Source: Heliocidaris erythrogramma (Eukaryota; Echinodermata; Echinoidea; Camarodonta; Echinometridae). From it: 64,000 nucleotides of DNA. Positions 20,701 to 60,879 of the stretch are shown here, piece after piece; position 1 is the stretch's first letter, and the number at the start of each line of letters is the position of its first letter. The position numbers and the translations under genes were made by a program. The DNA lies in contig CM046867.1 of the NCBI GenBank assembly GCA_025617745.1, positions 26,218,705-26,282,704 on the forward strand, in the 5' to 3' direction. The notes under the pieces are model-generated. The model saw nothing but the letters and a program-made list of their open reading frames with translations. It made no database searches and was not told the DNA's origin.

Positions 20701-23700
20701 AAATGAAATCCTGGCTATGCGGTTGGATCCTTCACATCTGGCCCCCCCCCCCCCCCCCTTTTGGAAAAATCCTGGCCACGCCTGTGAGCTACACACAGTG
20801 ACATACATGCTGTCTCTATGCGAAGCCCCAAGATTCCTGTGCGGGGAGCCTTCGGGGTGGAAAAGTGTTAGCATACATGTCTTTTGATACAAGGAGAACA
20901 GCAGCAGACTAAATGTACATGTATATTTAACACGTTTATTCCCACTTTCCTTTTCGTTATCAATATTGTTCATGAGCTTTAAGAGAAAAAGGAAATGTAT
21001 GATGTTTTTCAGTAAATGGCAAATGGATATGTTTCTTATTGGATTTTGCTATTAAAATTGATCTATTTCCTTCTATTTTTTTTTGCTTCTTTTCAAACCA
21101 AGTTGATATCAGGGTGGACTTCCCCTTTAAGGAGCTAAACTCTCATGTCTATTTTCAGTTTAACATTTGCATTTTCATCATTTTGTTAATGACCGACTCT
21201 AATCATTAAATTATCAACCAAATAATGATACTTAATGTGTATAAAATGGTTTTTCTTATACTTTTTTCACTCAAGAATGTACATGTAGACTGCAACATTT
21301 ATTTTTTCCTTTTGTCATTTTCAGGTATGCCTGTGGCCCTACAGTTTATGACTCTGCCCATATTGGGCATGCAAGGTAAATATCAATAGTTTTCTTCATC
21401 ATGCAGTTACATGTATAATGTATATTCACTTCTTTAATATTACTCCCCGGCACATACATACCGGTATATTCTGCTTTAATATTCCCTTTCACTCCCCTCT
21501 TTGACATCTTTTTCTTGTTTTATAATTGTTCAGCTTATTTTATGATGTACACTCTGCTTTAAAGGGAAAATATCAGTTTGGGCAAAATCTGATGAGAAAT
21601 AAGATTTTTGAAGTTGTAATCAATCAATCACAAATTGGCAACTGTGTGACATATCTTGCGAGCTCCTATCCCATTTGCCCTGTACTTTAAAAAAAACCCA
21701 TAAATTTCCATTTTTGCCTATAGAAAATATTTGATCATACATGCACTGTTGATATTATCATTGCACATCCAGTGCTGGTCAAAAGTTTTGGTACACCCTG
21801 GATTTTGTGTCAGTTTTTATTTTCCATGTAATGACCTTCTCCAGAATCTCAAAAGCATTTTTACAGGTTTGGATACTATATAAAGATAGTCTACATATAA
21901 TGTTTTGATACTTACATGTGTATTTTTCATTCTCCATTTTGACTTAAAAATTTAAACTGCCAAAAAGCAGCCTAAGTTATGACACTTGCTTCTTTTTTTT
22001 AAACACTTTTTGGTCAAAAATTCATAGAAAACTGACTCATACATGTACAGTAGAGACACCCCCCCCCCCCCCACAAAAAAAAAAAGAAGAAAAAAAAAAA
22101 AGAAAAAAGAAAAATCATGACAGGCTGTTTTGGTTATAGTCTTGTATTAAATCAAATGCATTTACCATGTCCACATGATTTCTTTCACTGGTTATTAACT
22201 TTAAATATATCCATCTAGTATTCTTCCAGCAACAGTCCAAAATGTTTCTTTGCCACTTCTTTTCAATTCGTCCCACCTATGCCATTTAGGGTTCAGGTAG
22301 AGAAGCTAAGCTCACTATAAAATTAAAGGCTGTTCCTCTATGTTGTGTCTAATTATTTTGTCATCCACTGATCCTGTATATGGTATGTAGCTTGAATAAA
22401 CATTTGTTTTTCGGGGTTGTTACTGTGATGTCGTGCGAAATGATGTTGTGGCATTCATGGTGGTCAGGAATATCATCAAATTTATATGGAACTCCATCAT
22501 CCATGCTTGACAAGTGGGGACAATGAAGGCAAGGAACACTTGTTCACCATCCATATGGACCCTACACTCATTTGAGTTGGCACAAAACTTTCCTCAGTGA
22601 AAGATTCCAGCGTTCTTTTCCTTTGGGAAAATCATAAATCTGATTTTTTTTTTTCATCGTAACCGGAAAATAACCCCCTAAACTATGTTTTATTGAAAGA
22701 AATATAAGAAGAAGGTTAAATAAATGAAACTGTTTGGCGTGTTCTGTCTCTGGACCCTAACCCCACACAGCTTGTGTTGGATGAGTTGAATAGGAAGGTC
22801 TAAGTAACATCCCTGAACTTTTGTGCTAGAATACTTAATGGAAATTTTAAGTAATAATTTTTCAGAAATTAATATATTACATTTGAAGTCCATAACCAAA
22901 CGGATGGCTACTTTGGACAATTCATTGAATAATTTGTTTTTCTTTCAATTTTGAAGAGAAATGTACTCTAAAATTGCATATATTGTTTTGTCATATTTTG
23001 TCAGTTGTGGGGATCCAACCAAGCACCGTCAAAGTAAATGACACCCTGAATGTATCAGAACATATCTTAAAATAAACATGTAATGTATTATAACCAAACC
23101 TTTAGGACATGTGTCAGCTAGGGCCTAGCCAAGCTCATTCAGTGGGGAATAGACATTCAAGTAAAATCTCATCTCAAAATCCAGGGTGTACCAAAACTTT
23201 TGACCAGCACTGTATGTTTTACACAAAAGCTGTATGTAGCAAATCTTTTGCATCATCAACAACTATGAAAATCAAATGTACTAAGCAAATGGGAGAGGAG
23301 CTCGCAATATACGTCACGGAGTTGCCAATTTGTGTTTGATTGAATAAACTTTAAAAATTCATAACTTTCTTATTTCTTATCAGATTTTGCTAAAACTTTC
23401 ACCAATCTGTTTCTCTCATTTTTCCGCTTTTATTAAAATAAACTAAATTCCAGGGTAGACTTCCCCTTTAAGACTATAAGTTAGGCCTAAGCCTGAGTCG
23501 AATCGATTGGTTAGCCGGTGTTCGATCGAAGACATCGAATCCCGATTTCGTTTTGGCAAAACCGGTGCATCGATTTGCAGTCCGCCAGATTTTTGACTAC
23601 CGTAGCCACCATGAAAAAAGCAAATAAAAAAGAAACTCCGTAACGTACAGCATATATACTAGCAGAGAACGTGAAGGCGACTTCAAACTGTGGCTAACTT

Positions 23701-26700
23701 TCGCTAATAGCGGGCTATTGTTAATGTCGAGCAGCGAGAGCCCCATACATATGTCCGCGATGCCAGCGGACCGGTCACCGGTGCATGGTGCATGCACTGC
23801 GTGCAACTGTGTGCAACTCTGTTCTCACCACCCATCATTTATCGATGCTCCGGTATTCGACCTAATCAAAGCCGTTGAATCCCGGATTATGAAATATTCG
23901 ATATGACTCAGGCTTAGTTAGGCCTAGATGTATCTGAGCCTGATTGGTTAGTCACGGACGGACATTTGACAAATTTTGGAAGTTTGAAGGCTTGTAGAAA
24001 ATAAGTATTTAATTGCAGAGTGCTATTTTATATTTCATGATGAAGGGCATCACTGAAGGAGTTGAAATTTGATAGAATTTGGTTGCCATGGTCGTCTACT
24101 AAATTTATAATCCATAAATTATTCAGTGTCACGGACGGACAAAATACTCTTAACCGATCAGGCTCATCGTTGAACCTACATTGATTGGGTGAAATAGATA
24201 CTCCTGTAATTTTTTTTGAATTTGAAATATATTTTCTGAAGAATTTCTTTCTTCCAACATATTACAACACATCAATAATCTTTACAAGTAGGCCTACATA
24301 ATAATTATCAGTGAAATGAAAAAATACCAAGGCTCTGAAATTTTGAAGTATTGAATTTCATTTAAAGCCCAATAGGCCTTACGTGTGATAGGCAGAGTGC
24401 AAAACTTAAAATTTGGGATAAATTTATTGACGACACTGTAGTATATTTGAGGGTGTTTCTTCGGCTAAAAAATTTTAATAATTGAAAATAAACGAGATCT
24501 TGGGTCAGATTTGCAGAAGTTCATTGTACATGTAAATGTAATTCCACCTTCTGTCAAGGCAATTGAAACTCTTAATTGTATGAATATACATTCCTTTGTC
24601 AATACCCCTGTTATATGAATTTTGGAAAAAAGTAACCTATTTTGGTTATCAAGCACATTTCATTGTGAAACTTAACATATGTCATTCTATTTGTGTGTGT
24701 ATCAAAAAAGTATACCCAACTTTGAAAGCTTCGTATTAAAAAAGCTTAAACCAATGTAATGCAGATTAAGCCAAGGTTGTGTCATCATAGCAAAGAAAAT
24801 ATCATAAATTTTGCTTGTAATAAGTCTTTTCTTAAGTTTGAGTTGACATGAACGCCTTTTCTATTCAAATGCACAAAATCAATTGAAATAACTCAGCAAT
24901 TGCTTTCAAACTGAAATAACACATGCATAATTGTTTTTGACCCCCATTCGTTGCTTCAGCCCAAACTTGGTACAAGAGGATTTTGGCAATACTTTTTGAA
25001 AAACCTACTATTCAGTCATCTGTGGCAGCATGGTTATGAATGAGGTATCATTTAAAGATAGAATAAAAGTTGCTCTTTACTATAAAATAAATGTCAAGCT
25101 CATAGAGGTTATAAATTACTTTTTGATTAGAAGTTGGGTATACTTTTTTTAAAATACACAATGTACAGGTGTATGTAGCCTATTTCTTAACATACACATA
25201 ATGGAAACTTTCTTATTGCTCACTTATAATACAGCTCCTATGTGAGATTTGACATCATCCGTCGTATCTTAGCAGAGTTCTTCCAGACGAGCGTCGTCAT
25301 GGTGATGGGTATCACTGACATCGATGATAAAATCATAAGACGGTCACAGGAGCAGAACGTACAGGACTTCAGAGAAATATCCCGACACTATGAAGGAGAA
25401 TTCTATCAAGATATGCAACACCTTGATGTAAGTATACATTGTATTATATGTTTCAAAGACATGAATATCTCTAGTACAATGTCTACAATTTGTTGAATTT
25501 GTATATTTTCAGGGGGAGGCAGTATAGAAATACACTGTTTGTCGAGTGAAGTCAATTAGCAGACAGTGAAAATCATGTTTAAAAACAACATGCAAAAGTA
25601 AAGTTGAAAAAAAATTCTGTATTTTATCCTTTCTTCGTGATTCCACATTGATAATGAAATGTGTTTTGTAACTATTCCCCCCCTTCATTTAATTCACTAC
25701 TGTTATACAGGTGCATATGTTTAAAGAAATTTGATTTTTTTTCTTTTTTTTTTTTCTTTTTTTTTTTACACTAGCCAGTTTTACATCAAACTAAAAAATT
25801 CCTAACTCTTACTAAATTATTGGATTTTTTTCTTCAAAATTCCACTGACCTGTTTTTATTGTTTTTTCCTACTATTTTAAAAAGTAAAGTGTATTTTCAT
25901 TATTATTTTACTCCCTCTGACCCTCTTACAGGTCTTACCAGCGACTGTGTACACACGTGTATCAGACCACATACCAGACATAATTACTTTCATTGAGAAG
26001 ATCATTAGAAATGGCTATGGCTATACTACAAGCAGTGGTAAGGCATTCAACTTTATTTGTTCACTTCAGTTCATATGCATGGTTGATTACTCTATTAAAA
26101 AGGAAAAAATATAATGCATATAAATTTTTGTGGTTTTCTCTTGGGCCATATTGTCTTGTTATGAATAACAGAAGTTTGTTAAAAATCATTACAAGTCTTT
26201 TTTGCTAATCAACATGAACATGACTAGTAATCATACATGTTTTTTTACTTCACCAGTCTGGTTAGTGTTGAAGCATAGCATGTTATTGACTGACTTTACC
26301 TAGCAGCATTTCCTTTCTCTAAACATAATTAATTGGAATAATGAACATGATATAGCCTAGGACTTTGCACACTTATGACATTTTTGTCTTAAAGCCCATG
26401 TATGTCACTCAAGAGTCGCAAATACAATGTGATCCTATCCGTATTTTGCATTTTTACAACTTCTATTAAGATGGCTACTTGAAATCCAAGGATGTTCATA
26501 AGGTGATTTAGATAGTTACTATTGCTGGTATATCAATTATTATTCACCTCCTTTGTTTATTACTAAGTATCATTCTCTGTAAAAGAGTTGGGGCAACCAG
26601 GATGAAATGGAACACTTGCACATCCCAATCAGTTATACTAGGAGGAGAGCCCCCCCCCCCCCCATATATTGCTGTACACATGCGTGAACAAAAAAACACA

Positions 26701-29700
26701 TGAGAAGGGTAGCTTTGGCTGGTGAAGTCGCATGACACATTTAGGGTGTCAAATAGGCCAAAAATTAAGAAAAAGGGTATGTTTCCTCAGTTTTAGAGGT
26801 TTAATTAATTAAAAGTAGACCTTATTTAGGGGTACATTTTCTTTAGTAAAAGCACAAAAAAATTGAAAATGGTGTAATTTTTACCATAATGGATAAAACT
26901 TGTTTAGGGGAGTTGTGGAAAACCTGTGGTCACACATGTATACTAAAATATATACTTACTGCCCGACCCTAGGGTTATAGTGATTAGGCTTAGGTGACAC
27001 TGAATGAATAGTTCTAGTACTGGGATTTTGATTTACTGTAATCTGCAACCAATTTGTTTGTAGAAAAACCTGCTGGATAGGTTTGGCAAGTAATAATACT
27101 TGACAGAATGATGCCTGTTTGTGTGTAATTCTAAAATAACTTTATACTACGAGACCTGACTAAGGCATTCCTCATTGAGGGTTTTGGGGCATACACAATG
27201 ATTCTGCAGGTTGCTAATACAGTGGTAATTGTAAACTTAAAGATAAGGTTGTGTAATTTAATTGTAAAAGAAACAGTTAATCTGAATTGTTCATTATTTA
27301 GTAAATATGGAAAATTGAATATTATGAGCATTTAAAAACATCAAAATTATAAGAAATTTACACAATCTTCCTCAAAATCACAACAATGAAAACCACTTGA
27401 CACAGATATGGGTATAAGGGACTAGGCAGACTTGTGGCATCAGAATTTGGTCTAAAGTTATAACCTATTTCAAGTCATATTGGGAATATGAGAACATTTC
27501 AAGAGCCATTTTCTCGAGGGACACATTACTACTACTATCATGATATTCTTCCACATGGGAATAAGAAGAATGAGAAAAGTCACAAATTAATTTTCACCTC
27601 TACCAGATAACTCAGTCTTCCAATGAATTGTTTGACTTCCCTAGGTAGTGTGTACTTCAACGTAGATGCCTTCACACTAGATAGATACAACAAGCTAGCC
27701 AGTCAAGACTTAGACGTCCAACATGACGAGGGCAAAGAGGTGATTGACCCGGAGAAGAGACACCCTAGAGACTTTGCTCTGTGGAAGGGGGCCAAGCCTG
27801 GGGAACCTTGGTGGGATACACCATGGGGAAGGGGGCGACCTGGATGGCACATTGAATGTTCAGCTATGTCGAAGTGAGTAGGAGATATAGAGGATTAGAT
27901 ACTTCAATCTGGATTACAAGTTCACGTCTTAGTGTTTCCTGATGAGAAATTAAGAGGCATCATGTAAGCTGATGTATCCGACTGAGTGAACTATTTTAGC
28001 AAATTCCTATTTCAGCAAATTCTGAACATTGTAGATCACACGCATTACCTGTATATAAAGGTAGATTTGATGCAAGTTTGTTAGATTAACTGAAATGTTC
28101 ACTCTGCATACATGTGTCTTCAATTTTAGGAGATGAGTTTCACTATATCTCTGAATGTCCTTTTTTCAGAGGGAAAAGTGCATGTATTTATCAACAACAA
28201 AAATTGACCAAGTGGGTTACAAATATCCCAATTATTCATTTCTGCTAATACTTGCCAGCTTAAGAAAATAGCAAAATTTGCCAGAACTATTATGATGCAA
28301 TTTACTCAGACACCAGAAGAGAAGAGTGAAGAATGCCATAGAGACATTGATAAAAATGAATCATGTGCTATACAAGAACTGAGTATTATTATTAGGCCAA
28401 GTAAAAAAAAAACATGTTTCTTGTCCGGGATTTTGAAAAAAATGAAAAAAGAGGGGCTTTTTATTATTTATTTTTTATTTTTTAAGATGGCACCATCTGA
28501 GAGTTTTGTCAATTCCGTATGTTTTCCCAATCACACAAAACATCAAAATAACGGAGACACTGTATGCCACACAAGAACTGAACATATTTACGATGTTTTT
28601 GATAGTGTTAGCACCATGTTTTAACACTTCTAAGCATATGAAATTCAATTTAGTGCAATAAAGCTATAGCAACCTTGCGATCACGGTCTGGGCGTCGCAA
28701 CATACACACGACTGCATGCAGGCGCTATGCGCGGTGTATGTGTTCGAATCCCACTGCAGCACTAGCATCCTTTGGCAAGACGTTAATCTACATTTGCCAC
28801 TCTCCACCCAGGACGGGTGTTAAATGGGTACCCGGTAGGATGCGAAAGTTAATGTCATTTGCTTAGCAACGTGAGCGTCACTGTACTGCCCATTGCTGGA
28901 ATACTCCCCAGGGAGTGGAGAATATGCCTACATTGTGTGCGGGCATGCCAGTATCCAATGACCGGGGTAATAATATATATCTAATTGTGAGCGCTTTGGG
29001 CCAGTATGGGAAAAGCGTGTTATAAATGCCAGGTATTATGTACTCTTAGTAGTAGAATAGTCAAACAACCAGAACAGGTAGTCTTGTAAACATGTTTCTA
29101 TATAGTGTACAATATTCACACTTATACACTTATACAGTGTGACCTCATTTATCCAACCACTAGCTACGTGTATCGGGTTCCTTCTGTCAACCAGACGGGA
29201 TCATGCAGTACATGCAATTCCACATGAAAATATCACTCAAACCTTGCTCAAAACTCACTCAAAACTCACTCAAAACTCACTCAAAACTCACTCAAACTTT
29301 CCTGATGCATCAATGATTGTTACAAACAGTTATAGCAACAAGTAAATACATAATCCCATGTATCAACCCTACTGAATGTATTATAGAAATGTTGTGCTTG
29401 AGCATAACTCTCATATAAGCCTAAAGCACATGACTGAGTTGGTTCCGTACCTGACCTGTTTGGAGGAATGAAGTCAGACTGTATGTTAACCCTTTCAATG
29501 CCACCAGACTTTTGAGCAAATGTCAAAAATGAAGTTTCAATAGTTAGATATTAACTTTCAAAGAGTTTTTCCTCAAGCAAACTGGGCAAAGATATATTGC
29601 ATAAGAATAAACATTGGACTGATGGCACAGGTTTCTGTATGAGGAAGAATTTTTATTCTGAACCTTAACAAAATGTTCAATACTCAAACATTTGGGCGGG

Positions 29701-32700
29701 ATTTGCCACCCACGGCATGGTAGGGGTTAATAACATGCTCCAATCGTGAAGTAAGCTGGATGAAGTACAGTCAAACCTGTCTTAGTGGCCACCTGTGTAT
29801 AGTGGTCACTTATATTGCCTCCCTGTAGCAAGAAATATGTGCTTTAGAACCTGTCTATAAAGGCCACCTGTCTACAGTGGCCACTTTTTCTGTTTGCCTT
29901 GGGTGGCCTTAATAGACGGGTTTGACTGTACTTTATATTATCAAGCAGCTAAATATTGAGATGCTCCATTCTCTCTTGTTCTCTGGTAGAGTTATCTTTG
30001 GTGAGAGATTGGACATTCATACTGGTGGCAGAGATCTAGCTTTCCCACATCACAACAATGAGATAGCTCAGTGTGAAGCTTGCTTCAACTCACATCAATG
30101 GGCTAATTATTTCTTGCATTCAGGTACATGTTGCTTGTAATAAAATTTAAGTACTCAAATACATCATAAACTGTGGAATCTCTGGTTTGAAATATAAATT
30201 CAAATTTATAATGCCATATTTTTACATCTGATAAAATATTATGATAGTGCCCCTTTAGGTCCTTTATTATATGAATAACACTTCATTTCCAATTCTATGT
30301 AGTTTGAGTTATCCTATGAATCAATTAATAAGACAATACAAGTATATGAGGATTTTAACCTGCTCTCTAGTGCATTAGAGTTTAATTCACTGCTACCTTG
30401 CATCATCAGTAGAGGTCTGTACAAAGACAGGATCAGTGACTATGTCATCTTCTCATACAACTACATTGTATCTCTCCAAGTGTTTCATTCTGGAGCAAAC
30501 TGCTTCACTTTACCATAACCCACTCCACTGCAATTTACAAGGAGATCTTCCAAGAAAGCTTTACGAAGTCTCCTCTGTCTCCTCTTTCCCTTTGGATGAT
30601 CTTCTAAGACCCTGAGCAGTAAGCCTTCATGTCGCATTATGTGTCCTAACAAGTTCTTCTGTCGTCCTCTGATCATTTCAGCAGTATATGCTCCCCATGA
30701 ACATGATTTAATAACTCTTCATGTGATTCTATCTCTCCTTGACGCTTCTCTTACCTTGCGGGTGTGGTTAAACAAGGCTGTGCTCACTGGCTTTCTTCAT
30801 TTTGATTTATTTTCCTTCAGGTCATCTTTACAGAAAGCATGATGTCGACAAGATGTCAAAGTCTTTGCAGAATGTTGTCAGTATCCAGGATTTCTTGAAG
30901 ACCTACACATCAAACCAGTTTAGATTCCTGTGTCTTATGTCAAAATACAGTCATGGTAAGAAGATCTGTACACTAAACCAGTTTAGATTCCTGTGTCTTA
31001 TGTCAAAGTACAGTCATGGTAAGAAGATCTGTACACTAAACCAGTTTAGATTCCTGTGTCTTATGTCAAAGTACAGTCATGGTAAGAAGATCTGTACACT
31101 GAACCAGTTTAGATTCCTGTGTCTTATGTCAAAGTATAGTCATGGTAAGAAGATCTGTACACTAAACCAGTTTAGATTCCTGTGTCTTATGTCAAAGTAT
31201 AGTCATGGTAAGAAGATCTGTACACTAAACCAGTTTAGATTCCTGTGTCTTATGTCAAAATACAGTGTCATGGTAAGAAGATCTGTACACTAAACCAGTT
31301 TAGATTCCTGTGTCTTATGTCAAAGTACAGTAATGGTAAGAAGATCTGTACATTGAACCAGTTTAGATTCCTGTGTCTTTTGTCAAAGTATAGTCATGGT
31401 AAGAAGATCTGTACACTAAACCAGTTTAGATTCCTGTGTCTTATGTCAAAGTACAGTCATGGTAAGAAGATCTGTACACTAAACCAGTTTAGATTCCTGT
31501 GTCTTATGTCAAAGTACAGTCATGGTAAGAAGATCTGTACACTGAACCAGTTTAGATTCCTGTGTCTTATGTCAAAGTACAGTCATGGTAAGAAGATCTG
31601 TACACTAAACCAGTTTAGATTCCTGTGTCTTATGTCAAAGTACAGTCATGGTAAGAAGATCTGTACACTAAACCAGTTTAGATTCCTGTATCTTTTGTCC
31701 AAGTTTAATCAACATAAGAATCACATGTGCTTTGAACTTTGTCAAATGGAGAAGAGGTTGTTGGAAACAGCATTAATAGATAGTGATTTAGAGATAAGGC
31801 ATACCATGACTTGGAACCCTGTTACACATGCGTCAGCTTTCAAAGGCGGTCCCGGAGCCGGCTTCACACCTGCAATTTGAAGCCGCCTCAAGACCATTAA
31901 AACCCCTGTTACACATACCTCGGGCCCGCAATTTTGTGTCTACACATAGGCCGGCTTCACGTCGCCTTTTCACGAGCTGACGTTGGGGCGCACTCCATGT
32001 AAAAAATTTTGCGCGGTTCGCACACTCGCACTGCAGGTGCTGTACTATCTCATCGACATCGTGAACGGTCCGCGCATGCACAGCTCTTACGGGTTACGTA
32101 ACTTCCGCTTAAAAGCCGGCGCCGAGTCCACTTTGGTGTTACACATACTGATTGCGGGACTGAGTCCGGCGTGAGGCCGGCCTCAAACCACATCCAGAGG
32201 TGGACTGGGATGGAGGCGGCTTCAGTCCGGCTTTTAAAAAAAGTTGATGTTACACATACGTCGAGCCGCCTCCGGAGGCGGCCTCAGTCCACTTTCAGAG
32301 GTATGTGTAACAGGGGTCTAAGTCATCCATGTCATTTTCTCATGTATGCGTTCCCAGTAAAATGTCAAACTATTGCCCCATATGAATATTAACCATGGAT
32401 CTGAATGTATAAGATCACTCAAATATTCATTTTAAAGGAGATTTTACTGAAAGATAATCACTAAGAGACTTAAAATGGAAATGGCATTACCGGAACTGAT
32501 TAAAGTTCCTATTTTTCTTTTCCATTACATTTCAGATTTTGAGTATGGACCTGACACAATGCAGCAAGCTGTGGTGCTACATAGACAGATGTCAGCATTT
32601 CTCAATGATGCTGATGCATATGTCAAAGGTCAAATATGCTGTAAACCATTCGATGAGGCTGAACTTATGCAAAGGTAATATTTATTCCTGCCATTATCAA

Positions 32701-35700
32701 CCTTATATTAGTACATACATATGACACTTCGGCAATACTTTAGAGCCATTTTTTTTTATTGTATCCCCCGGCAGTATGCCGGAGGATACTTTGGATTCAG
32801 CAGCGTTTCGCCGCCGCCGCCGCCGCGTCACATTCTTGTGTGCGCTCTAGCGGTCACATTTCTCGACGAATTTCTTTCAGACTTCCTATGGACGTGTATC
32901 TTGGTAAAATCTGGACCCCTATAGTTTCTGGTGATGCTGCCCCCAGTGTTCCGTCTTTTATAGGGTAAAAGGCCATATTTTTGGGGAAAGTTTGTGTGCG
33001 CTCTAGCGGTCACATTTCTCAACGGATTTTGTTCAAATTTTGTATGAAGGTGTTTCTTGGTAAAATCTGGAACCCTGTAGATTTTGGTGATGCTGCCCCC
33101 AGTGTTCCGTCTTTTATAGGGTCAAAGGTCATATTTTGATAGATGTCTTGTGTGTACTCTTGTGTGCGCTCTGGCGGTCACATTTCTCAACGGATTTTGT
33201 TCAAATTTTACATGAAGGTGTCTCTTGGTGTAATTTAAAAACCTATAGTGTTTGGTGATGCTGCCACCAGTGTCCCGTCTTTTATAGGGTCAAAGGTCAT
33301 ACTTCAGGACATGTCGTGAGTGCACTCTGCAGGCCACATTTCTCAATGGATTTTGTTCAAATTTTGTATGGAGATGTATCTTGGTATAATCTACACATGT
33401 TTAATTTTTGGTGATGCTGCCCTCATTGTTCCGTCCTTTATAGGGTCAAAGGTCATTTTTCCATTTCTTGCACTCTTACTTCTGCATTTCTTGACGGATT
33501 TCGTTCAAATTTTGCATGAAGGTGTCCCTTGGTGTAATCTAAAAACCTGTAGTTTTTGGTGATGCTGCCACCAGTGTCCCGTCTTTTATAGGGTCAAAGG
33601 TCATACCTCAAGGGATGGCGTGAGTTCACTCTGCAGGCCACATTTCTTGATGGATTTCTTTCAAATTTTGTATGGAGATGTATCTTGGTATAATCTACAC
33701 ATCTTTACTGTTTGGTGATGCTGCCCTCATTGTTCCGTCCTTTATAGGGTCAAAGCTCATTTGTCCCTTTTGTGCACTCTTACTTCTGCATTTCTTGACG
33801 GATTTCATTCAAATTTTGTATGTAGGTCCATTATAGATTACACCTCTACAGTTTTTGGTGATGCTGCCTCTAGTGTTCCGTCTTTCATAGGATCAAAGGT
33901 CATATTTTAGTGGATGTCTTATGTGCGCTCTGAGGTCATATTTCTTCCGAATTTTCTATAACAATGCATTATACTCTAATCTACACAAATCGTTTTGGTA
34001 ATGCTGCTCCTGGTGTTGACAATATTCCGGGCCACTGGCGGCAATTTCTACACCATCCTTTTGTTTGAGGGAGGGGATGGGGGAGGGTCTTTGTCCCTCC
34101 TTCAAATCGCTGCCAGCGCCGGGGGATACATTTCGCATTGCGCGGCACGAGGAATGCACATTTCTAGTTTGTCATTTGTTTTGATATCACCTATGAAAAC
34201 ATGTAACAAAAAAAATGGATGACTATTGATATTTATTATATTTGGCTTGATTGCAGAATACCCCACCAAACATCATTACAGTGCATTAGGCTTAGGGTTA
34301 GGATCAGGGTTAGAGTTAAGGTCATGGTCAGGGTCAGGGTTAGGGTTAGAGTTGGGGTCAGGGTGAGAGTTAGCGTCAGGGTCAGGTTTAACATTAGTAT
34401 CGGGGTTAGGGTTAGAATGAGGGTTATGGTTGGGCCCTAGGGACAGTTTTAGGGTTGGTATTAGGATTAGGGTAACTTGTGTAGTTGGATAATTTTCAGT
34501 TCTTCCATTTATTTATTTCGGGATGTCCCATCGTTTACTATGCGATGTAGGTTGGATGAAACTCAAGAGGAAGTCATTGAAGCATTTGCTGATGATTTTG
34601 ATACCAAGAGGGCGCTAGACTGCATCATGAAGCTGGCTCATACATGCAACTCCAATTTCAGCCAAGTTTCAGAGGTAAGCCTAACGTCATGTAAACACAT
34701 TGAATTGGAATTGCTTTCATTTGCATGGAAGCCTTTAAAGTTCAAGAGGAATAATCCAGGCTTAGAGAAAACCATAACACATGCATATATCAGACAATTG
34801 GAAGGAGTAAACTACAATTTGAAAAATAAGTGTCGTGGTGGCTCAAAATAGACACGATTCTTAAAAATATATATTTTGTATTAGATTAATTTTGGTGTTT
34901 GTATAGTAATATTTGACATGATTTTACCAATGTTGTAGATGTTCACAATGGGATTTTGTTTGTTTTTTTTGCAGGATGTATCAGCACGTAGCCCAGGAGT
35001 AGTTGCTGCAGTAGCAACATATATGAACCATGTCTTATCTAGCTTAGGATTACACATGTCTACAAGAGCCGTAAGTATGATTTGCTCTTATCATTTATTT
35101 GTGAAGCAGTATGTTTTCCTTGATAATTATAGAAGGATTGTGAATCAAATAGCCAAAAAATAAGGATATTTCTAAATTCAGAACAAGTATTTTTTTATTA
35201 TTCATTGTTCGTTCCCAAGTTCACTGAGAAAAAGAACATTGGGTCCAGACTCGATTTCATCAACAATTTAAGAATAACCTAAATCATGAGACTTCTAGAC
35301 ATAAGTCTCTTCTTGGTATAAATGATTGTCGATGTGATATCATTATGGTTGTATCAAAGTGTAGTTGCAATTTGAAATTCTAACCCCTTTTGTGCCACCT
35401 GGGCCCTCTTGCCTAAAAAGTTGTGTTTAAACGCAACTCAAAAGGTTAAATGCAACTCAATTTTCAACCAATCAGGATCGCGCATTTGGGACTTGCTTTT
35501 AATTATTTAAGCTGCGATTGCACGCAACTTTTTATGCAAGCAGGATCGCGAACAATTCCCCGAAAATGAACTTTCAAGAATCAAATTTGTGGTCTTAAGT
35601 CTTTGTTTGATGGTTAAATTTGGTTTTGAATATCTTCTATGAGAACAACCTTCAAAATGTATGCACCTGTCTCTATTTCAGGATAAAAACAAATGGCTAC

Positions 35701-38700
35701 TTTTCATCCAGACACAAAGTTGAATATTAATATTTGCGGGTGTGATGTGCCACTCCATGGCACGGTAGGGGTTAATTTCTGTGGAGCAATATAATTGAGC
35801 ATTGTTTATTTTTTTATTCCAGAGTGCCCACCTTGACCAGTCCTCACAAGCCATGACCACTGCTGTCGACACACTGGTCAACTTCAGACAGGATGTCCGT
35901 CGATGGGCTCTCACTGACCAAGAAGATCATGGAATATCTAGTGTTAGTCAGAGCAGCCATGGTAAGTGTTATCGTACCATAGAGTGTCTTGAACAACATA
36001 AATTCCTCAACCGGTTGTACAACACATGTACAACCATGGAGTGTCTTGAACAACATAAATTCCTCAACCGGTTGTACAACACATGCTCGGGGACGATTGC
36101 TCCTTGATCAGTATCCAATATTAACTACAACCATGGACCAAACACTACACATGTGCCTAACCCTAAACCTAAAGCTAATTTAAATCCCAAATGCAACCCC
36201 AACCTTAACCCTATATTTAATCGTAACATGGCAAAGTGTATTGAGAGAGATAGTTGTGACACATGTGCAGGAGTGCCGTCATAAGTTAAATAAAGGAGCT
36301 CCGAATTGTACCCACCCTCATACAGTCTCTTTGAGAGGGAACTATGTGGAGCTCCATGAAAGGAATGACCACTCAGGAGCAGCTTCACATAACTATTTCT
36401 CTCAACTAGCCATGTATTACAGGATTTGCTGCCCACCTTATGGGAAGGAATGTATTTTCTCCTTGCAAATATCTTTTATATTACAAGTTAATTTTCAACA
36501 AAAAAACTTGTATTTGATTAAGTTGTAGTGAATGTTTAATGGTGTGTATCAGAACATGGAGAGCAGTAAGTGGGATAAAGGATGTTCATTGATTACCAAT
36601 AGTAGAATTATCACTTTTGCATGTAATAGATTTATCAGCTGCTGTTCATCTCTGTTTTTCTGAGCATCCATTGCTTCAGAAGAGCTTTACATGTATATGA
36701 TGTTTTACATTGGATGATGGTATTGTGAGTATTACAAATATTCTGTTTTTATGTCATTCCAGGGGATTCAGAGGATATGAGAGAGAGGAGAAAAAAGCTG
36801 ATGAAAGAGCGAGCTCCACTGCTTAATGCATGTGATCATGTTAGAGATACATTGGCACAGAATGGCATACAGATTAAGGTAATCTAGAGAGTGTTCTTCA
36901 GTCAAATAATAGAACGCCATATTACATACAACTACTGGTTTATTGACATTAAGAGAAATCATGTGGGTAGTGATAGATATCACGCTTTTCCCAGTTGTGT
37001 GTATGTAATTGTGTACGTTATCAACTTGTAACGCTGCACTGACATGTATGTCACTTTTATTATAGGCTGCTGGAGAAATTGATAAATTGAATCAAATGAA
37101 GTAAAAAATTTTACTTTCTTGCATGCAACTGTGCATCAAAATTTTCTTTCATCATTAAAAAAGAAAGAGTTGTTACAATTTTATGTTAAAAGAGCAATCC
37201 AATCATTCCAACAAGTAAACTTGGATGAAAACAGAATTGTGACAGTTTGAACAAAATCAGAAAAATAATATGAAATTTATTCACATTTCAAAGTTGTAAA
37301 CACTATGCATATTGGAACCTCAAATTGGCGAATGACTTACATATTTTGAAACAATTCTCGCATTTGTGTTTTTCACTAAAATATCATTAATTCTGGGTTA
37401 ACGCTTTTCCTCGGGTAGTACTCAAAATATATTGTGATTGAGGTATTCCACAACAGAAAGATCCTACCCCGTCATAGATTTTGCATAAAAAATAACATTT
37501 TAGTCATTTTGTGTGTTGGAACAAGTGGGAGAAATGTCTGCCTCTACATCACAGTGCCATTATCAATCTGACCAATTTGAAATTCCCATACATACAGTGA
37601 TTACAACTTTCAAAGAATCATTACTTTATTATTGTTTATCCAATTCAATTCAAACTTTTTCCAGTGTGCTTCTCTGATTTATTTTCTTTCTTTCAAAGCA
37701 ACTGGCTATTAAAGTTTGATTTCAATATAATATAATCCTTTGCTTCTCTCTAGGACCGTGGAGCTTCAGCCACATGGGAGTTTGTAGAGAAGAAGAAGCC
37801 AATCAAAACAGAGGTATGATATTAAGTACCAATTCATACATACTCGTACTATGTATTCTAAATGTACAGATATATATCAATATACAGGGGGAACTCAATA
37901 TAACGAGGCCGTCGGGACCCAAGGGTCTTCCTTGTTGGAGCCGTTATCTTGTTAAATCTGAACATACATAAAAATGCATATATGGCACTAAATTCTACGT
38001 GTACACTGATAATGAATGTACCGAGTTCTGCTGTCGCCGCTTATATACTCATTTGATAGATAAGAAGGGATTAATAATTTAATCCTCTGGATTAGTTAAT
38101 AAAATATCGGATAATATTGGAAAATGCGTGAAAAGAATTATGTAAATTACTGATTACAAGTCAAGTTCGTCACACTTGTGAGCTCATGAACATCGATGTC
38201 CGTTGAATGGGTACGGCTCGTGCATATAGCACTCTCATGATATGAAAAAAAACAAGTCTCATTTGTGTTTCGGGGACGGACCACTGTGGTACGAATAAAA
38301 AGACACACCCCGCATAGCGCAATCTCGTCCACTGTCGCCCAAAATGGCCCGATATCTCTTTACTACACTCGCATTTGTGTTAATAGTGAATTCATTCTCC
38401 AGCTTAATGATTTCGTCCATTTGAGGCGCAGTGAAATTTGTTTGCTCGTTATAACGGGAATGATTACCAGTCTTTTTCTTTGTTTTAGAGGCGAGGGATT
38501 TAGCTCCTTATAGCCGACCTCGCTATAAAGTTACGTGCCACCATAAAATTACACATAAGTAAATTTGGGGCCGTGACAATATTCTCATTAAAGCCGACCT
38601 TATGTGGAGTTTGCCCTGTATATATTTTTACTTTGTGAGGTTGTATTCATTCATGTAACGTTGATACAAGGTATGGTGTGGATATATGGGAGCCCCTAGG

Positions 38701-51700: not shown

Positions 51701-54700
51701 GAGTGAAACCAGTACGATTCGGTGGGTCTCACAATCTACCAATGTTCAAATGACCATTTAAAAAATGGCCATGTAATTATTATTTTTTAATTAAAGTATC
51801 ATATATACGATGCCACTTACCTAAACAGACTTTACGCAAATCAGCTTTTCCTAAAAAATGTGTAGAATCGATGAATGTCACTTTTTACTCTCAATTTTCG
51901 AAACCAGTCCCATTCGCCATGTTGTTAAAGCCAAATTGAAAATAGGCACTTGCGCATGCGCCTATGAATGTTTATTACAATGACGGCATAGTTTTCGTCA
52001 ATGGAATAATGAATATTCATATACCCACTGTAATCCGCCGATCGCTAGCTGTCTAGCGCTCTCGCTCAAGCTCGTCTTAATGAATATTCATAATCCTCCC
52101 TTCTTGTCTGTATTATTATTGGAGCTGCTGACGCATGCGCATTGCAAGCAAAACACCGACCTTCGGAAGTTTTTACTACAGGCTCTTGGAGATAAATCTG
52201 CCTTTTTTGTATCATCCTCATTGAAAAGAAAGACGACAGTCAACCGTAAAGTATTGTAAGTACCTAAAATAGCCTAAAATCAACTGATTTCATGTTTCAT
52301 GGCTATCATTTTGACAAACGACCTTGTAATTATGTGACATCCATGCGATCAAAGGACTGCGAAGCGCAGCCCGAACACTACGTGTTCGGGCTGCCGCAGT
52401 AAAAGGACATGGAACCTTGAAAATACAGAGCAAATATTTTTGTATTTTGTACCCTTTAAATTCTTTTCATACCCCTCCAACAAATGCCTTAATAAATGTC
52501 CATTCATGACATGTATACTATCTATTTGCTTGTTAGAAAACAGTTTTGACGGTGCTTATTATTCAAATTTGATTATTCACACCATGTACATGTATGTCAA
52601 TGTACTGAACTCTTGAAAATTTTGTGCAGCTCACAGGGAGGAAATATAGGAATACTGGGGGTTTTCTTTAATTTATTAGTCTGATTTTTTCAGACCTTAA
52701 TCAATTTCACTCTCTCCCCAAAAGAATTTTGTCGTTAATAGTCAAGTTCCTATCGCGTACACAGAAAAGTCCCGATTTTCTGTGTGTCTGCGCTATCGTA
52801 GAGATCTATGTGCGCTTGCGATCCCGAGTTCTTCATGGACAAAAAATTTATTGGCCGATTTTAGTGTAAGACATCGGCGGTATGTAAACAACACGCGATT
52901 GCGAGCCGAAACAAATCAGCGGTGATTTCTGACATGATTTCTAAGGGGCTGATTTCTGATTTGGACATGATTTTGACTTTGGATTTTGCTGGAAATATCA
53001 AAAGTTCTTCCTAACAGCCATCTAGGTAGGAGTGAGATTTTTAAGGAGTGGATTTTTAAGGGCTGAATTTGAAAGAAGTTTTTAAAATATTTATCTTATT
53101 CCCCCCCCCATACCTTTAGTACATGCAACAGAAAATAACTATTTTTGCATGCATATATCATAGTGGTCAATATGACCACTATTCGTGGTGTGATATGGAT
53201 TAGGAAGGAAAAATCGATGATACATGTAGATCTATACTGTACATAAGGAGAAGAGGAACATCTTGGCAAACCCAAATTTGTATCAGAGCATGGAAAGTCC
53301 ATAAAATAAAATTCTAGTAAATGTCAGTGAATTCAAACTTAAATTAATTTGCGTATTTTTCTTTCTTACTAGTGAAGTAGTGAATGTTTGCCGTAACCCC
53401 ACATAGCTGAGGAATAACCCTGAGGATCTACGAGTGAGAAATTTATGTTTCATCTTCAGGTGTGAACAAATGTGTGAACAAATATTATTTGATATGAGGA
53501 TGAAAAATATTTTGTCTCTTAAACTTTTATATGAACATATCAAACATTTAACAAATTATTAATAAAGCTGTTTTGATGAAGTTGAGCCCTTCTTCTTTTC
53601 ATGTATTCAAAATGTAAACAAATAACTGAATTACGAACCATGTTTTCAATCTCTATCCTGCGCTGCTCTCGCTGTCTCTTTACTGCTGAATGGCTAACAG
53701 GTTTCTCTGGAGTGAAGGTGGTCCGTTTTGCACTGCTTGGTCTACTGACTCGACCTGATCTAGGAGGCTCACTAGGCTTCCCAACAATCTTATCCAGGAG
53801 TCTCCTATTGTCTCTATCAATACGCCTCACTTCATCGTTACTAAACGACATGTTCATTCTCTGGTGGGGCATCGGGGCCGACTGCGGTCGATTTTTTCTC
53901 TTCCCAGAGATGGGTCTCTTTAAATTCTTGTGCAGAGCGGACAAATCAGATTCACTTGGGGTTTCATCCAATTCCAGCACTGCTCTAAGCAGCATGCTCA
54001 GTTCTTTTGCTTCAGTTTCTCGTCGACGAGGATCCTCATCATACTGTGAGTAGCCTGGTGTTTTGGTCACTTTGCGACCCTCTTTGCCTTTGGGCTTGGA
54101 TGATTTGGGTCTGCTCTTGGCACGTCTTTCATTGGAATCTCTGTAACTGTCTGTATGATCCTCCTCAAAGTGAACAGTTCTCATTCTCTCCGTTTCCCGC
54201 TCCATTTCTTGTTCATCATATTCCAGCTTAGGAATAGGGGAACTCAATGGACTTTGGAGGGGAGACACATCTGTCACACTGTCATTGTCTCTGTGACTTT
54301 GACTCGACTCTGAAGTAAAACTTGAGCTTGATCTTGAGCTCTCAGTGGATGCATTGGAACTTGAACTATCTGATCTTCTTCTCCTACCAACGGATGTTTT
54401 GGGACGAGAATTTGAACCAGTTTTACTTTTAGATGCAGCTTTTCCATTTAGAGAACGTCCTCTATCATGTCTATCTTGCCGTTTTTCTTTCAGTGCATCA
54501 ATATCGTCTTTAAAACGAAATGTGTCATTCCCATTCTTTGCCTTCTGCTCTTCTCTATCACTATCATCAAAATCATCGGAATAATAATCCGCATCATTAC
54601 CGTCATCGTGAGTTGGAGTTGCTGTTGGAATTCTGACGCTCACACTGCTACGGCTGCTGGCCACACTTCGGACCGACTCCCTATCATTGTCCCCGTCGTA

Positions 54701-54835
54701 TCCCCGTGCACTGCCCGCCCGCTTACCGCTCAGCGGTCGGTTTGGTTTTGGATCAGACCTCGAACTGCACTTCGTTGATGAACCTTCGTCAAAGAAGTCG
54801 AAGTCTATCGGTTCTGGGCTACTTTCCTGATTCAT
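42544..54835 (-). CDS. CFAP97: Cilia- and flagella-associated protein 97 (Hemingway family)
   Basis: Coding exons: 54835-53639, 44872-44719, 42716-42544, total 1524 bases, 507 residues (human CFAP97 is about 530). The N-terminal half is disordered and rich in Ser, Asp, Arg and Lys (DFFDEGS at 14-19, DADYYSDDFDD 81-91, a Ser tract 155-180, VTDVSPLQSP 187-196). The family core is at 279-395: LSMLLRAVLELDE, then MSFSNDEVRRIDRDNRRLLD and HSAVKRQREQRRIE, continuing in exon 2 with QILKRIEAARATPQVKKNEL. The tail is KARRPAWDDRFYLDD. The family is needed for motile cilium and sperm-flagellum assembly (fly Hemingway, mammalian relatives); a ciliary role here is inferred. RPxSxKR-type motifs recur five times. 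Confidence 0.9.
43021..43625. repeat. Foldback-like element of CCCCAGGACAATTACC motifs
   Basis: The left part is built of CCCCAGGACAATTACC-like words in tandem; the right part (43565-43625) of GGGGATAATTGTCCGG-like words, the inverse. Between them lies unrelated DNA plus further CCAGGACA words at 43415-43500. A second element of this type is at 59205-59962. Confidence 0.7.
43951..44150. repeat. 97-bp tandem duplication
   Basis: GGTCTTCACATGGTCCCCTT followed by ATAAxACCCTACATTATATA begins at 43951 and again at 44048. Both end in a C-run (22 Cs in the second) and an ATATTCACAAAATA word. Confidence 0.92.
44719..44872 (-). CDS. CFAP97: CFAP97 exon 2
   Basis: Acceptor TTTTCCTCTGCAG, donor G|GTAATG. 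Encodes QILKRIEAARATPQVKKNEL and LKDYHQQMQYATQVSKTPGG then PTSRPSSAKRA. LKDYHQQM matches LMDYHRNM of the human protein. Confidence 0.9.
44970..45382. mobile_element. Inverted-repeat element in the CFAP97 intron
   Basis: TAGTTACGTTCACAAGAAG at the left and an imperfect inverse CTATGAACATAG-type end (GTATGAACATAGCTAGT) at the right. The interior repeats CTTGTAGTTTCAAAGCTTTA-like words in both orientations. About 100 bases upstream of exon 2. Confidence 0.5.
45739..45761. repeat. Perfect 10-bp-stem hairpin
   Basis: GCTCCAACGC-TGC-GCGTTGGAGC, abutting the left end of the long hairpin element. Confidence 0.85.
45762..46271. repeat. Near-perfect 510-bp foldback (long hairpin)
   Basis: The left arm 45762-46007 and the right arm 46038-46271 are inverted copies with four substitutions and three small indels (2-5 bases) by my count, around a 30-base loop. 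End words are CCCAGGTACAACTATCC and its reverse. The two oppositely oriented open frames over it are mirror shadows. It lies inside CFAP97 intron 1, so the primary transcript should form a long duplex. Confidence 0.95.
46272..47159. other. CFAP97 intron, nothing recognised
   Basis: AT-rich with several ACATGTACATGTA runs (46730, 46785). No element ends identified. Confidence 0.4.
47160..47425 (-). mobile_element. Element flanked by (ATT)n microsatellites, copy 1
   Basis: ATT/ATTATT arrays on both sides enclose ATTACAACATTATTTCCTAC then GTTAGGGTGAATCC...GGTTTATTCCATCACAAT and GGCGAATGATAACAATAGGC. The reverse complement of the same core, also within AAT arrays, is at 56575-56815. Confidence 0.8.
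47426..48349. other. CFAP97 intron, low-complexity and unassigned
   Basis: A GAGAGAGAG tract at 47515-47540 and an ATT/ATC run at 47894-47935; otherwise nothing recognised. Confidence 0.4.
48350..49238. mobile_element. MITE, TTTAAAGGAGAATTAACATT ends
   Basis: The left end TTTAAAGGAGAATTAACATT then AGAATATATAAA is inverted at the right (TATTCTAATGTTAATTCTCC then TTTAA). About 890 bp and no transposase frame. Confidence 0.85.
49255..50355. mobile_element. 1.1-kb element with long inverted arms
   Basis: The left arm (about 49255-49512) has CCAAATTTTAAAA, AAGTGGATTTGGGG, AGGGATGTAAATTC, ATTCATAGTGAAGG and GACTACAATACTGG; the same landmarks occur reversed at about 50085-50345. The arms are around 250 bases and clearly diverged, with an AT-rich centre. 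No coding capacity. Confidence 0.8.
50414..50691. mobile_element. Compact MITE of the AAAGTCCACCCT family
   Basis: TTTAAAGGGAAAGTCCACCC then TGATTACAAGTTGG at the left; CCAACTTGTAGGCAGGTTGG then ACTTCCCCTTTAA at the right. This 278-bp copy is the clearest full-length reference for the relatives at 17981/21130, 21558, 37180, 39565 and 62772. Confidence 0.88.
50692..51665. other. CFAP97 intron, nothing recognised
   Basis: No repeats or conserved frames seen; the 80-codon plus-strand frame at 51120 shows no similarity I recognise and runs against the host gene. Confidence 0.4.
51673..51699. repeat. Perfect 12-bp-stem hairpin
   Basis: GGACGCTGCCAC-GAA-GTGGCAGCGTCC. With the hairpins at 52357-52391 it may mark the two ends of a roughly 720-bp insertion. 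Confidence 0.85.
52357..52391. repeat. Twin GC-rich hairpins
   Basis: CTGCG-AAG-CGCAG (52357-52369) is followed by GCCCGAACAC-TAC-GTGTTCGGGC (52369-52391), sharing one base. Confidence 0.85.
52752..53150 (-). repeat. Dispersed repeat, copy B (inverse of 15945-16285)
   Basis: Shares with copy A the landmarks GAAAAGTCCCGATTTTCTGT, GGACAAAAAATTTATTGGCC, TTTTGACTTTGGATTTTGCT and GGAGTGAGATTTTTAAGG, in the opposite orientation. It has short duplications (GGCTGATTTCTGA and GATTTTTAAGG) absent from copy A. Confidence 0.87.
53151..53638. other. CFAP97 intron start, nothing recognised
   Basis: AT-rich; holds the intron's 5' portion directly after the exon 1 donor. Confidence 0.4.
53639..54835 (-). 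CDS. CFAP97: CFAP97 exon 1 (coding)
   Basis: Begins MNQESSPEPIDFDFFDEG; an in-frame TGA lies 45 bases upstream of the ATG. The exon is 399 codons and ends at ENM with a weak-looking donor, ATG|GTTCGTAAT. This splice is preferred because joining exon 2 gives IENMQILKRIEA, which matches RENLALLKRLEA in vertebrate CFAP97. Failure to splice would add 32 unrelated residues before a stop. Confidence 0.88.
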
Positions 54836-55107
54836 CCTGTGGTCATCAGTTGTATTTGAATTGCAAAAATTGCTGCAAATTCATCACATTTTTTGGTTCG
54901 CAATTGCAAGTGTTCTCTCGAGCCTAGCCAGGATCAGGAGGACGTACAGCTTGAATGTGTTGTAGCAACTGTGACGTCATAGTGTCAATTATTTACCCAC
55001 ATTCTTACCGACAGATGGCGCTCAACTAGAAAGCAAACAGGAGGGCATACTGGTATGATCGAATCTCTTTGAAAGCAAACCCAAAGAATAGGTTTATGGG
55101 GGTAACA
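54836..55107 (-). promoter_or_regulatory. CFAP97 5' leader and probable promoter region
   Basis: Directly upstream of the CFAP97 start; contains TTGGTTCGCAATTGCAAG and GTGACGTCATAGTG at about 54971, a CRE/ATF-like TGACGTCA. No TATA box is evident. Assignment is by position only. Confidence 0.4.
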
Positions 55108-55307
55108 TCATAATCAGGGAGGAGGGTCGCTATTCATAATCAAAGAAAAGGGTCGCTATTCATAATCGGGGAGGAGGGTCGCTATTCATAATCAAAGAAA
55201 AAGGTCGCTATTCATAATCTGAGAAGAGGGTCGCTATTCATAATCGGGGAGGAGGGTCGTTTGTCATAATTGAAGAAGAGGGTCGCTATCATAATCGAAG
55301 AAGAGGT
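55108..55307 (-). repeat. 26-bp minisatellite, 7-8 copies, reverse orientation
   Basis: GGGTCGCTATTCATAATCGG then GGAGGA repeats head to tail, alternating GGGGAGGA and AAAGAAAA variants. It is the reverse complement of the larger array at 60274-60879. Confidence 0.92.
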
Positions 55308-60273: not shown

Positions 60274-60879
60274 TTTAAATGACGACCCTCTTCTCCGATT
60301 ATGAATAGCGACCCTCTTCTCCGATTATGAATAGCGACCCTCTTCTCTGATTATGAATAGCGACCCTCTTCTCCGATTATGAATAGCGACCCTCTTCTCC
60401 GATTATGAATAGCGACCCTCTTCTCCGATTATGAATAGCGACCCTCTTCTTCGATTATGAATAGCGACCCTCTTCTCCGATTATGATTAGCTACCCTCTT
60501 CTTCGATTATGAATAGCGACCCTCTTCTCCGATTATGAATAGCGACCCTCTTCTCCGATTATGATTAGCTACCCTCTTCTCCGATTATGAATAGCGACCC
60601 TCTTCTCCGATTATGAATAGCGACCCTCTTCTCCGATTATGAATAGCGACCCTCTTCTCCGATTATGAATAGCGACCCTATTCTCCGATTATGAATAGCG
60701 ACCCTCTTCTCCGATTATGAATAGCGACCCTCTTCTCCGATTATGAATAGCGACCCTCTTCTCCGATTATGAATAGCGACCCTCTTCTTCGATTATGAAT
60801 AGCGACCCTCTTCTTCGATTATGAATAGCGACCCTCTTCTCCGATTATGATTAGCTACCCTCTTCTCCGATTATGAAGT
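60274..60879 (+). repeat. 26-bp minisatellite, about 23 copies
   Basis: GCGACCCTCTTCTCCGATTA then TGAATA in tandem, with variants TTCGATT and ATTAGCTACC recurring at intervals. No spacers, so it is not a CRISPR array. Confidence 0.96.

What the first reader, a model, noticed from the sequence alone, without database searches (positions are those of the whole stretch)
30912..31720. A CARS2 exon end and its splice donor repeated 13 times in tandem
The last 44 bases of exon 7 and 19 intron bases form a 63-bp unit present 13 times; 12 copies keep a GTAAGA donor. 63 is a multiple of three and units 1-5 have no stop, so donors 1-5 would yield proteins with 0, 21, 42, 63 or 84 extra residues right after the KMSKS region. 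A two-base insertion in copy 6 ends this open series. It is a natural splice-donor ladder in a housekeeping enzyme, and the copy number could vary between individuals.
Basis: partly seen in the sequence, partly recalled or inferred. Interest (0 to 1): 0.85.

Follow-up and report, generated by a model that had tools for sequence, protein, structure and literature searches.

The report
Repeated splice donor in CARS2 intron
The end of one exon of an animal's mitochondrial-type cysteine-tRNA synthetase gene, with its splice donor, has been copied into 13 tandem units, which looks like the 'mirage' minisatellites already described in lancelets and probably leaves the normal protein unchanged.

Summary
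A 63-bp unit spanning the 3' end of a CARS2-type exon is present 13 times; 12 copies carry the same ATG|GTAAGAAG donor. Donors 1-5 stay in frame with the next exon (+0, 21, 42, 63 or 84 residues); a 2-base insertion in unit 6 breaks the series. I correct the unit: not 44 exon plus 19 intron bases but the last 59 exon bases plus GTAA, forming 13 complete units (30897-31717) with GAA at both limits. The outermost unit probably holds the ancestral donor, now dead. Interior units are homogenised and both edges diverged, as in a turning-over minisatellite. Donor 1 joined to the next exon aligns to two of three displayed CysRS structures without a gap, so donor 1 is very probably the working one. 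This is a known kind: amphioxus 'mirages', tandem copies of exon/intron boundaries reported not to disturb splicing. Human IFI6 shows that extra repeat donors can be used. The isoform ladder is possible but untested: I have no RNA data, no relatives and no species name. The array would make a clean natural test of choice among identical donors, but it is a new member of a known kind.

The parts
30821..30955 (+).
   Evidence: AG acceptor and GT donor, frame continuous with neighbours; spliced protein passes the TIGR00435 cysS cut-off
30897..31717 (+). array of 13 complete 63-bp units (13 x 63 + 2), with GAA at 30897 and GAA at 31718
30897..30959 (+). unit 1: real exon end plus donor 1 (last exon base 30955); 5 of its first 15 bases differ from the unit consensus
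30960..31211 (+). units 2-5; donors after 31018, 31081, 31144, 31207, in frame with the next exon
31212..31276 (+). unit 6, 65 bp with a 2-base insertion; donor after 31272, out of frame with the next exon
31277..31654 (+). units 7-12; donors after 31335, 31398, 31461, 31524, 31587, 31650; use of these meets a stop codon
31655..31717 (+). unit 13, diverged (9 of 63); donor position reads CAAC|ATAAG, dead; probably the ancestral donor
   Evidence: ancestry is inference
32536..32674 (+). next CARS2 exon (acceptor TTTCAG); joins donor 1 in frame
21325..36878 (+). CARS2-type gene, identified exons 21325-21375, 25235-25427, 25932-26037, 27645-27873, 29990-30123, 30821-30955, 32536-32674, 34551-34674, 34975-35070, 35823-35961, 36763-36878; a short last coding piece lies beyond 36878; N-terminal exon(s) not found

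Best explanation
The array is a minisatellite that arose by tandem duplication of the last 59 bases of a CARS2-type exon plus the first bases of its intron, probably by slippage or unequal exchange between two GAA triplets that would lie 63 bp apart in a one-unit ancestor. It expanded to 13 units by further unequal exchange. The working donor stayed at the exon-side end of the array (donor 1). The ancestral donor at the far end, 758 bases away, lost its GT and decayed. Units 2-13 are now intron, and normal CARS2 mRNA joins donor 1 to the exon at 32536. Because donors 2-5 are the same and in frame, occasional use would add 21-residue steps; use of donors 6-12 would give frameshifted transcripts, most of them probably removed by nonsense-mediated decay. 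Shown: the unit, copy number, donor identity, frames, edge divergence and the gap-free fit of donor 1 to two solved enzymes. Inferred: the duplication mechanism, which donor is used, NMD, and copy-number variation between animals.
For: Array and register. Edges differ from the interior: unit 13 has 9 of 63 changes against 10 of 693 in units 2-12 (Fisher p 5e-6), and unit 1 has 5 changes in its first 15 bases against 1 in the other 48 (p 0.002) (edges were picked after looking, sites treated as independent). The same variants recur in separate units (A-to-G at column 16 in units 4, 8, 11; C-to-T at column 52 in units 4, 5, 8), as unequal exchange or conversion gives. Donor 1 plus next exon aligns without a gap at the junction with 1li5 and 8qhp. 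The +21 form scores lower (TIGR00435 357.2 against 366.9 bits; Pfam PF01406 32.5 against 39.7 bits on fragments). The exon's KTYTSNQ has a counterpart KYTSNQ in PDB 9yru (1 of the 3 chains displayed), which suggests that the exon is the source and the unit's KICTLNQ the derived form. Published arrays of this anatomy are reported not to disturb splicing.
Against: No RNA evidence of any kind. The third displayed chain, 9yru, has a 2-residue insert 7 residues after the junction, and the +21 form still passes the cysS cut-off of 340 bits. The 12 donors have the same U1 pairing energy (-8.0 kcal/mol), so intrinsic strength does not favour donor 1. Predicted local folding leaves donor 1 less open (0.12 and 0.08 in two settings) than 10 of the other 11 (0.21-0.42; donor 6 is 0.10 and 0.09). 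Four of 6 variant types in units 1-12 are synonymous in the exon frame, P 0.014-0.049 by transition weight (the first 15 columns of unit 1, the 2-base insertion and unit 13 were left out of that count), a weak hint of coding constraint. The ancestral-donor claim rests on one diverged unit.
Confidence: 0.8

Rival explanations
1. Isoform ladder: donors 1-5 are all used at appreciable levels, giving CARS2 proteins with 0-84 extra residues, perhaps functional and variable between animals.
For: Same donor and conserved frame; 4 of 6 variant types synonymous; the +21 form still passes the cysS cut-off; in human IFI6 two downstream repeat units serve as extra donors, giving three mRNAs (PMC4526556); in human segmental duplications 66% of repeat-driven intron modifications also have support for a transcript that keeps the repeat in the exon (PMC2812944).
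Against: The insertion point lies in a stretch that aligns without gaps to two of three displayed CysRS chains; lancelet arrays of this type are reported not to give aberrant mRNAs; a length that is a multiple of three with no stop is not rare by chance (my estimate, about 1 in 4, no call).
Confidence: 0.12
2. Poison array: the most intron-proximal donors are often chosen, so that many transcripts carry the frameshift or stops and CARS2 output depends on array length.
For: SRSF1 favours the intron-proximal of two competing donors in human DOK7 (PMC5585400); donors 6-12 lose the frame.
Against: Donor 12 would make an 830-base exon, long for exon definition (general knowledge); a housekeeping enzyme would be impaired.
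Confidence: 0.05
3. The run of donors acts as a U1 landing pad that strengthens definition of the exon and is kept for that reason.
For: 12 intact donors, while the outermost one is dead.
Against: Homogenisation by unequal exchange explains the intact donors without selection.
Confidence: 0.04
4. Assembly artefact: the copies were made or miscounted by the assembler.
For: Units 2, 3, 9, 10 and 12 are identical.
Against: The units carry patterned differences, a unique 2-base insertion and diverged edges that fit a real array. The exact copy number may still be wrong.
Confidence: 0.04

Closest known systems
Amphioxus 'mirage' minisatellites (Adh3; globins BflGb6 and BflGb9; TnC; PGBD5 similar)
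   Same: Tandem repeats over an exon-intron boundary, units 10-160 bp, splice signals in many copies, interior homogenised and edges excluded (BflGb6); BflGb9 copies a 3' exon boundary as here (PMC3087553 and PMC3902484, passages)
   Different: Here the gene is CARS2, there are 13 units, 12 with one identical donor, and the unit is in frame. The species is not known, so whether it is a cephalochordate is untested
Human IFI6 (6-16, G1P3) splice-donor minisatellite
   Same: A minisatellite in which repeat units offer splice donors; an in-print case of repeat donors being used (PMC4526556 passages; the original Turri 1995 paper is not held)
   Different: Short units (12 bp, recalled); here the unit is a 59-base exon end plus GTAA, and donor use is unknown
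Tandem repeats altering exon-intron structure in human segmental duplications
   Same: Variable tandem repeats at exon-intron boundaries that may form novel introns (PMC2812944 passages)
   Different: Those are paralogues in primate-specific duplications with transcript support; here no transcript is known
Intron gain by tandem duplication with a proto-splice site (Drosophila)
   Same: Tandem copy of exon sequence turned into intron; multiple-of-three copies allow alternative forms (PMC2891723 passages)
   Different: Here an existing intron is extended; no new intron is made

Membership tests
Mirage minisatellite | Tandem repeat unit spans an exon-intron boundary | tested here: met
   Unit is 59 exon bases plus GTAA
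Mirage minisatellite | Copies carry the splice signal | tested here: met
   12 of 13 units keep GTAAG
Mirage minisatellite | Interior concerted, edges excluded | tested here: met
Mirage minisatellite | Length instability between haplotypes or cells | not testable with these tools
   one sequence only; no genome held
Mirage minisatellite | Regular splicing undisturbed | not testable with these tools
   no RNA data
Mirage minisatellite | Host is a cephalochordate (all cases seen are) | not testable with these tools
   species not given; no eukaryote collection offered
IFI6-type donor minisatellite | Several repeat donors used in mRNA | not testable with these tools
   no RNA data
Cysteinyl-tRNA synthetase (cysS, TIGR00435) | Score above curated cut-off | tested here: met
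   366.9 bits, cut-off 340
Mitochondrial CARS2 rather than cytosolic CARS1 | Bacterial-type length without the cytosolic insertions, plus a mitochondrial leader (features recalled) | tested here: inconclusive
   Aligns to 8qhp and 1li5 without large inserts; N-terminal exon not found

The most novel reading that the evidence does not exclude
The array is a length-variable, in-frame donor ladder: donors 2-5 are used at measurable levels to make CARS2 with 21-residue steps, while donors 6-12 divert transcripts to decay, so that array length and the position of the unit-6 insertion set the isoform mix and output of an essential mitochondrial enzyme.
Probability: 0.1. Interest if true: 0.65.

Novelty: new member of a known kind. 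Interest (0 to 1): 0.35.

Why it matters
Twelve donors with the same 11-base core and nearly identical flanks in a row form a natural competition assay: position is the main difference between them. RNA from one animal would show whether the exon-side donor wins and how fast use falls with distance. If the ancestral-donor inference is right, it also shows an intron growing at the expense of copied exon ends.

Tried and rejected
Splicing inside the array between units was judged unlikely but not excluded: of 75 AGs in the array the 8 best were listed, with pyrimidine fractions 0.75 (31704, in diverged unit 13), 0.70 and six at 0.65, against 0.60-0.85 in 10 real acceptors, which is a weak separation. 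RNA accessibility gave no support for donor 1. Exon-against-window BLAST (E up to 0.05) gave array hits for 1 of 11 exons, plus one 15-base minus-strand hit of another exon far from its boundary. Rfam reached no gathering score in the window. The exon limits first guessed were partly wrong and were replaced by those. The row for donor 21374 is off by one base and was not used. No paper search used CARS2 as a term.

Full report
What is there. No whole genome is held for the window; the gene has introns, so it is a eukaryote. The window carries a cysteinyl-tRNA synthetase gene on the + strand. Eleven exons were recognised by reading frame and splice signals. Ten of them plus a short last coding piece, read by eye from the sequence printed, gave a 482-residue protein that passes the curated cysS cut-off (366.9 bits, cut-off 340). 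I call it CARS2 because it aligns to bacterial-type enzymes such as 1li5 (E. coli, species recalled) without large inserts. The N-terminal exon with a mitochondrial leader was not found, so this name is likely but not proven.

The array. The exon 30821-30955 ends ...AGTCATG|GTAAGA. From there a 63-bp unit repeats (TRF 30912-31704). The core is found 13 times, spacing 63 throughout except 65 at copy 6. Twelve units have the same 11-base donor region, and GTAAGAAG occurs nowhere else on the + strand of the window (12 of 12 inside). The thirteenth has CAAC|ATAAG.

A corrected unit. That is 10 of 15 identical, and all five differences are transitions. At 73 of 62,951 other positions of the window the match is at least as good, and at 348 of 62,951 the extension score is. 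At the 3' side, similarity runs to TAAGAA and then stops. With these limits the array is exactly 13 units plus the 2-base insertion, 30897-31717, with GAA at both limits. So each unit is the last 59 bases of the exon plus GTAA. The exon version is probably the older one, since KYTSNQ occurs at this place in PDB 9yru; the other two chains displayed, 8qhp and 1li5, do not have it.

How it arose. In a one-unit ancestor the two GAA triplets would lie 63 bases apart, which fits slippage or unequal exchange between them (inference). Interior units differ little (10 of 693 positions in units 2-12), while unit 13 differs at 9 of 63 and unit 1 at 5 of its first 15 bases. The same single-base variants recur in separate units. 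This is the usual pattern of a minisatellite that turns over by exchange, with its ends left out. In a tandem duplication the last unit is the one that stays joined to the old intron, so unit 13 probably holds the ancestral donor, now dead. The working donor would thus have moved 758 bases upstream relative to the rest of the intron (inference; distance).

Which donor works. Donor 1 joined to 32536 gives a protein that aligns to 1li5 and 8qhp without a gap at the junction; the best hit, 9yru, has two extra residues shortly after it (three of the eight hits were displayed as alignments). Each further donor to number 5 adds 21 residues in frame. Donor 6 reads the next exon in the wrong frame and donors 7-12 meet a stop. 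The +21 form scores lower on the family models (357.2 against 366.9 bits in TIGR00435; 32.5 against 39.7 bits in PF01406 on fragments), though it still passes the cysS cut-off. The insertion point lies 30 residues after KMSKS (counted by hand on the translation). U1 pairing is -8.0 kcal/mol for all 12 donors and -1.4 for the thirteenth; nine other donors of the gene range from -6.6 to -11.0.

Results against the ordinary reading. Four of the six variant types in units 1-12 are synonymous in the exon frame (P 0.014 to 0.049 by transition weighting). The first 15 columns of unit 1, the 2-base insertion and unit 13 were left out of that count. The number is small, the types are shared between units, and the three codons that differ in the first 15 bases of unit 1 all change the residue (T/I, Y/C, S/L, seen in the translations), as do most of those in unit 13 (by eye). 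I therefore do not take it as coding selection. Predicted folding makes donor 1 one of the two least open donors. No RNA data could be consulted.

What is known. Tandem copies of exon-intron boundaries are described in amphioxus as 'mirages': Adh3 with 10-72 bp units, globin BflGb6 with 150-160 bp, BflGb9 with 157 bp at a 3' exon boundary. [quoted passage not shown] PGBD5 of lancelet has 60- and 108-bp repeats at splice sites, and Adh and TnC mirages are said not to generate aberrant mRNAs (PMC3902484, passage). On the other side, in human IFI6 two downstream repeat units serve as extra donors (PMC4526556, passage, citing Turri 1995, which is not held), and in human segmental duplications 66% of repeat-driven intron modifications also show a transcript that keeps the repeat (PMC2812944, passage). 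The array here has the anatomy of a mirage. I cannot say whether the animal is a lancelet. Ten paper searches ran; none used CARS2 as a term, so they say nothing about whether this array is in print.

Verdict. The unit was mis-assigned, and a ladder in use is unproven and less likely than plain use of donor 1. It is a clean new member of a known kind, useful as a natural test of choice among identical donors.

Noticed in passing
window 53543-54880, - strand: 446-codon open frame with a Hemingway/CFAP97 domain (PF13879, 35.6 bits).
   Followed up: partly
window 55108-55306 and 60283-60877: Two arrays of nearly the same 26-bp unit in opposite orientation, about 5 kb apart (likeness judged by eye).
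   Followed up: no
window 35976-36085: A 57-bp tandem duplication begins 15 bases after the last base of another CARS2 exon (35961), in the intron and without the donor.
   Followed up: partly
window 32836-33945: Array with 156/304-bp units in the following CARS2 intron.
   Followed up: no
window 34286-34431: Degenerate TTAGGG array inside a CARS2 intron.
   Followed up: no
window 31239-31880, + strand: Units 7-13 and about 160 bases beyond are open in one frame (213 codons), offset from the exon frame by the 2-base insertion in unit 6.
   Followed up: partly
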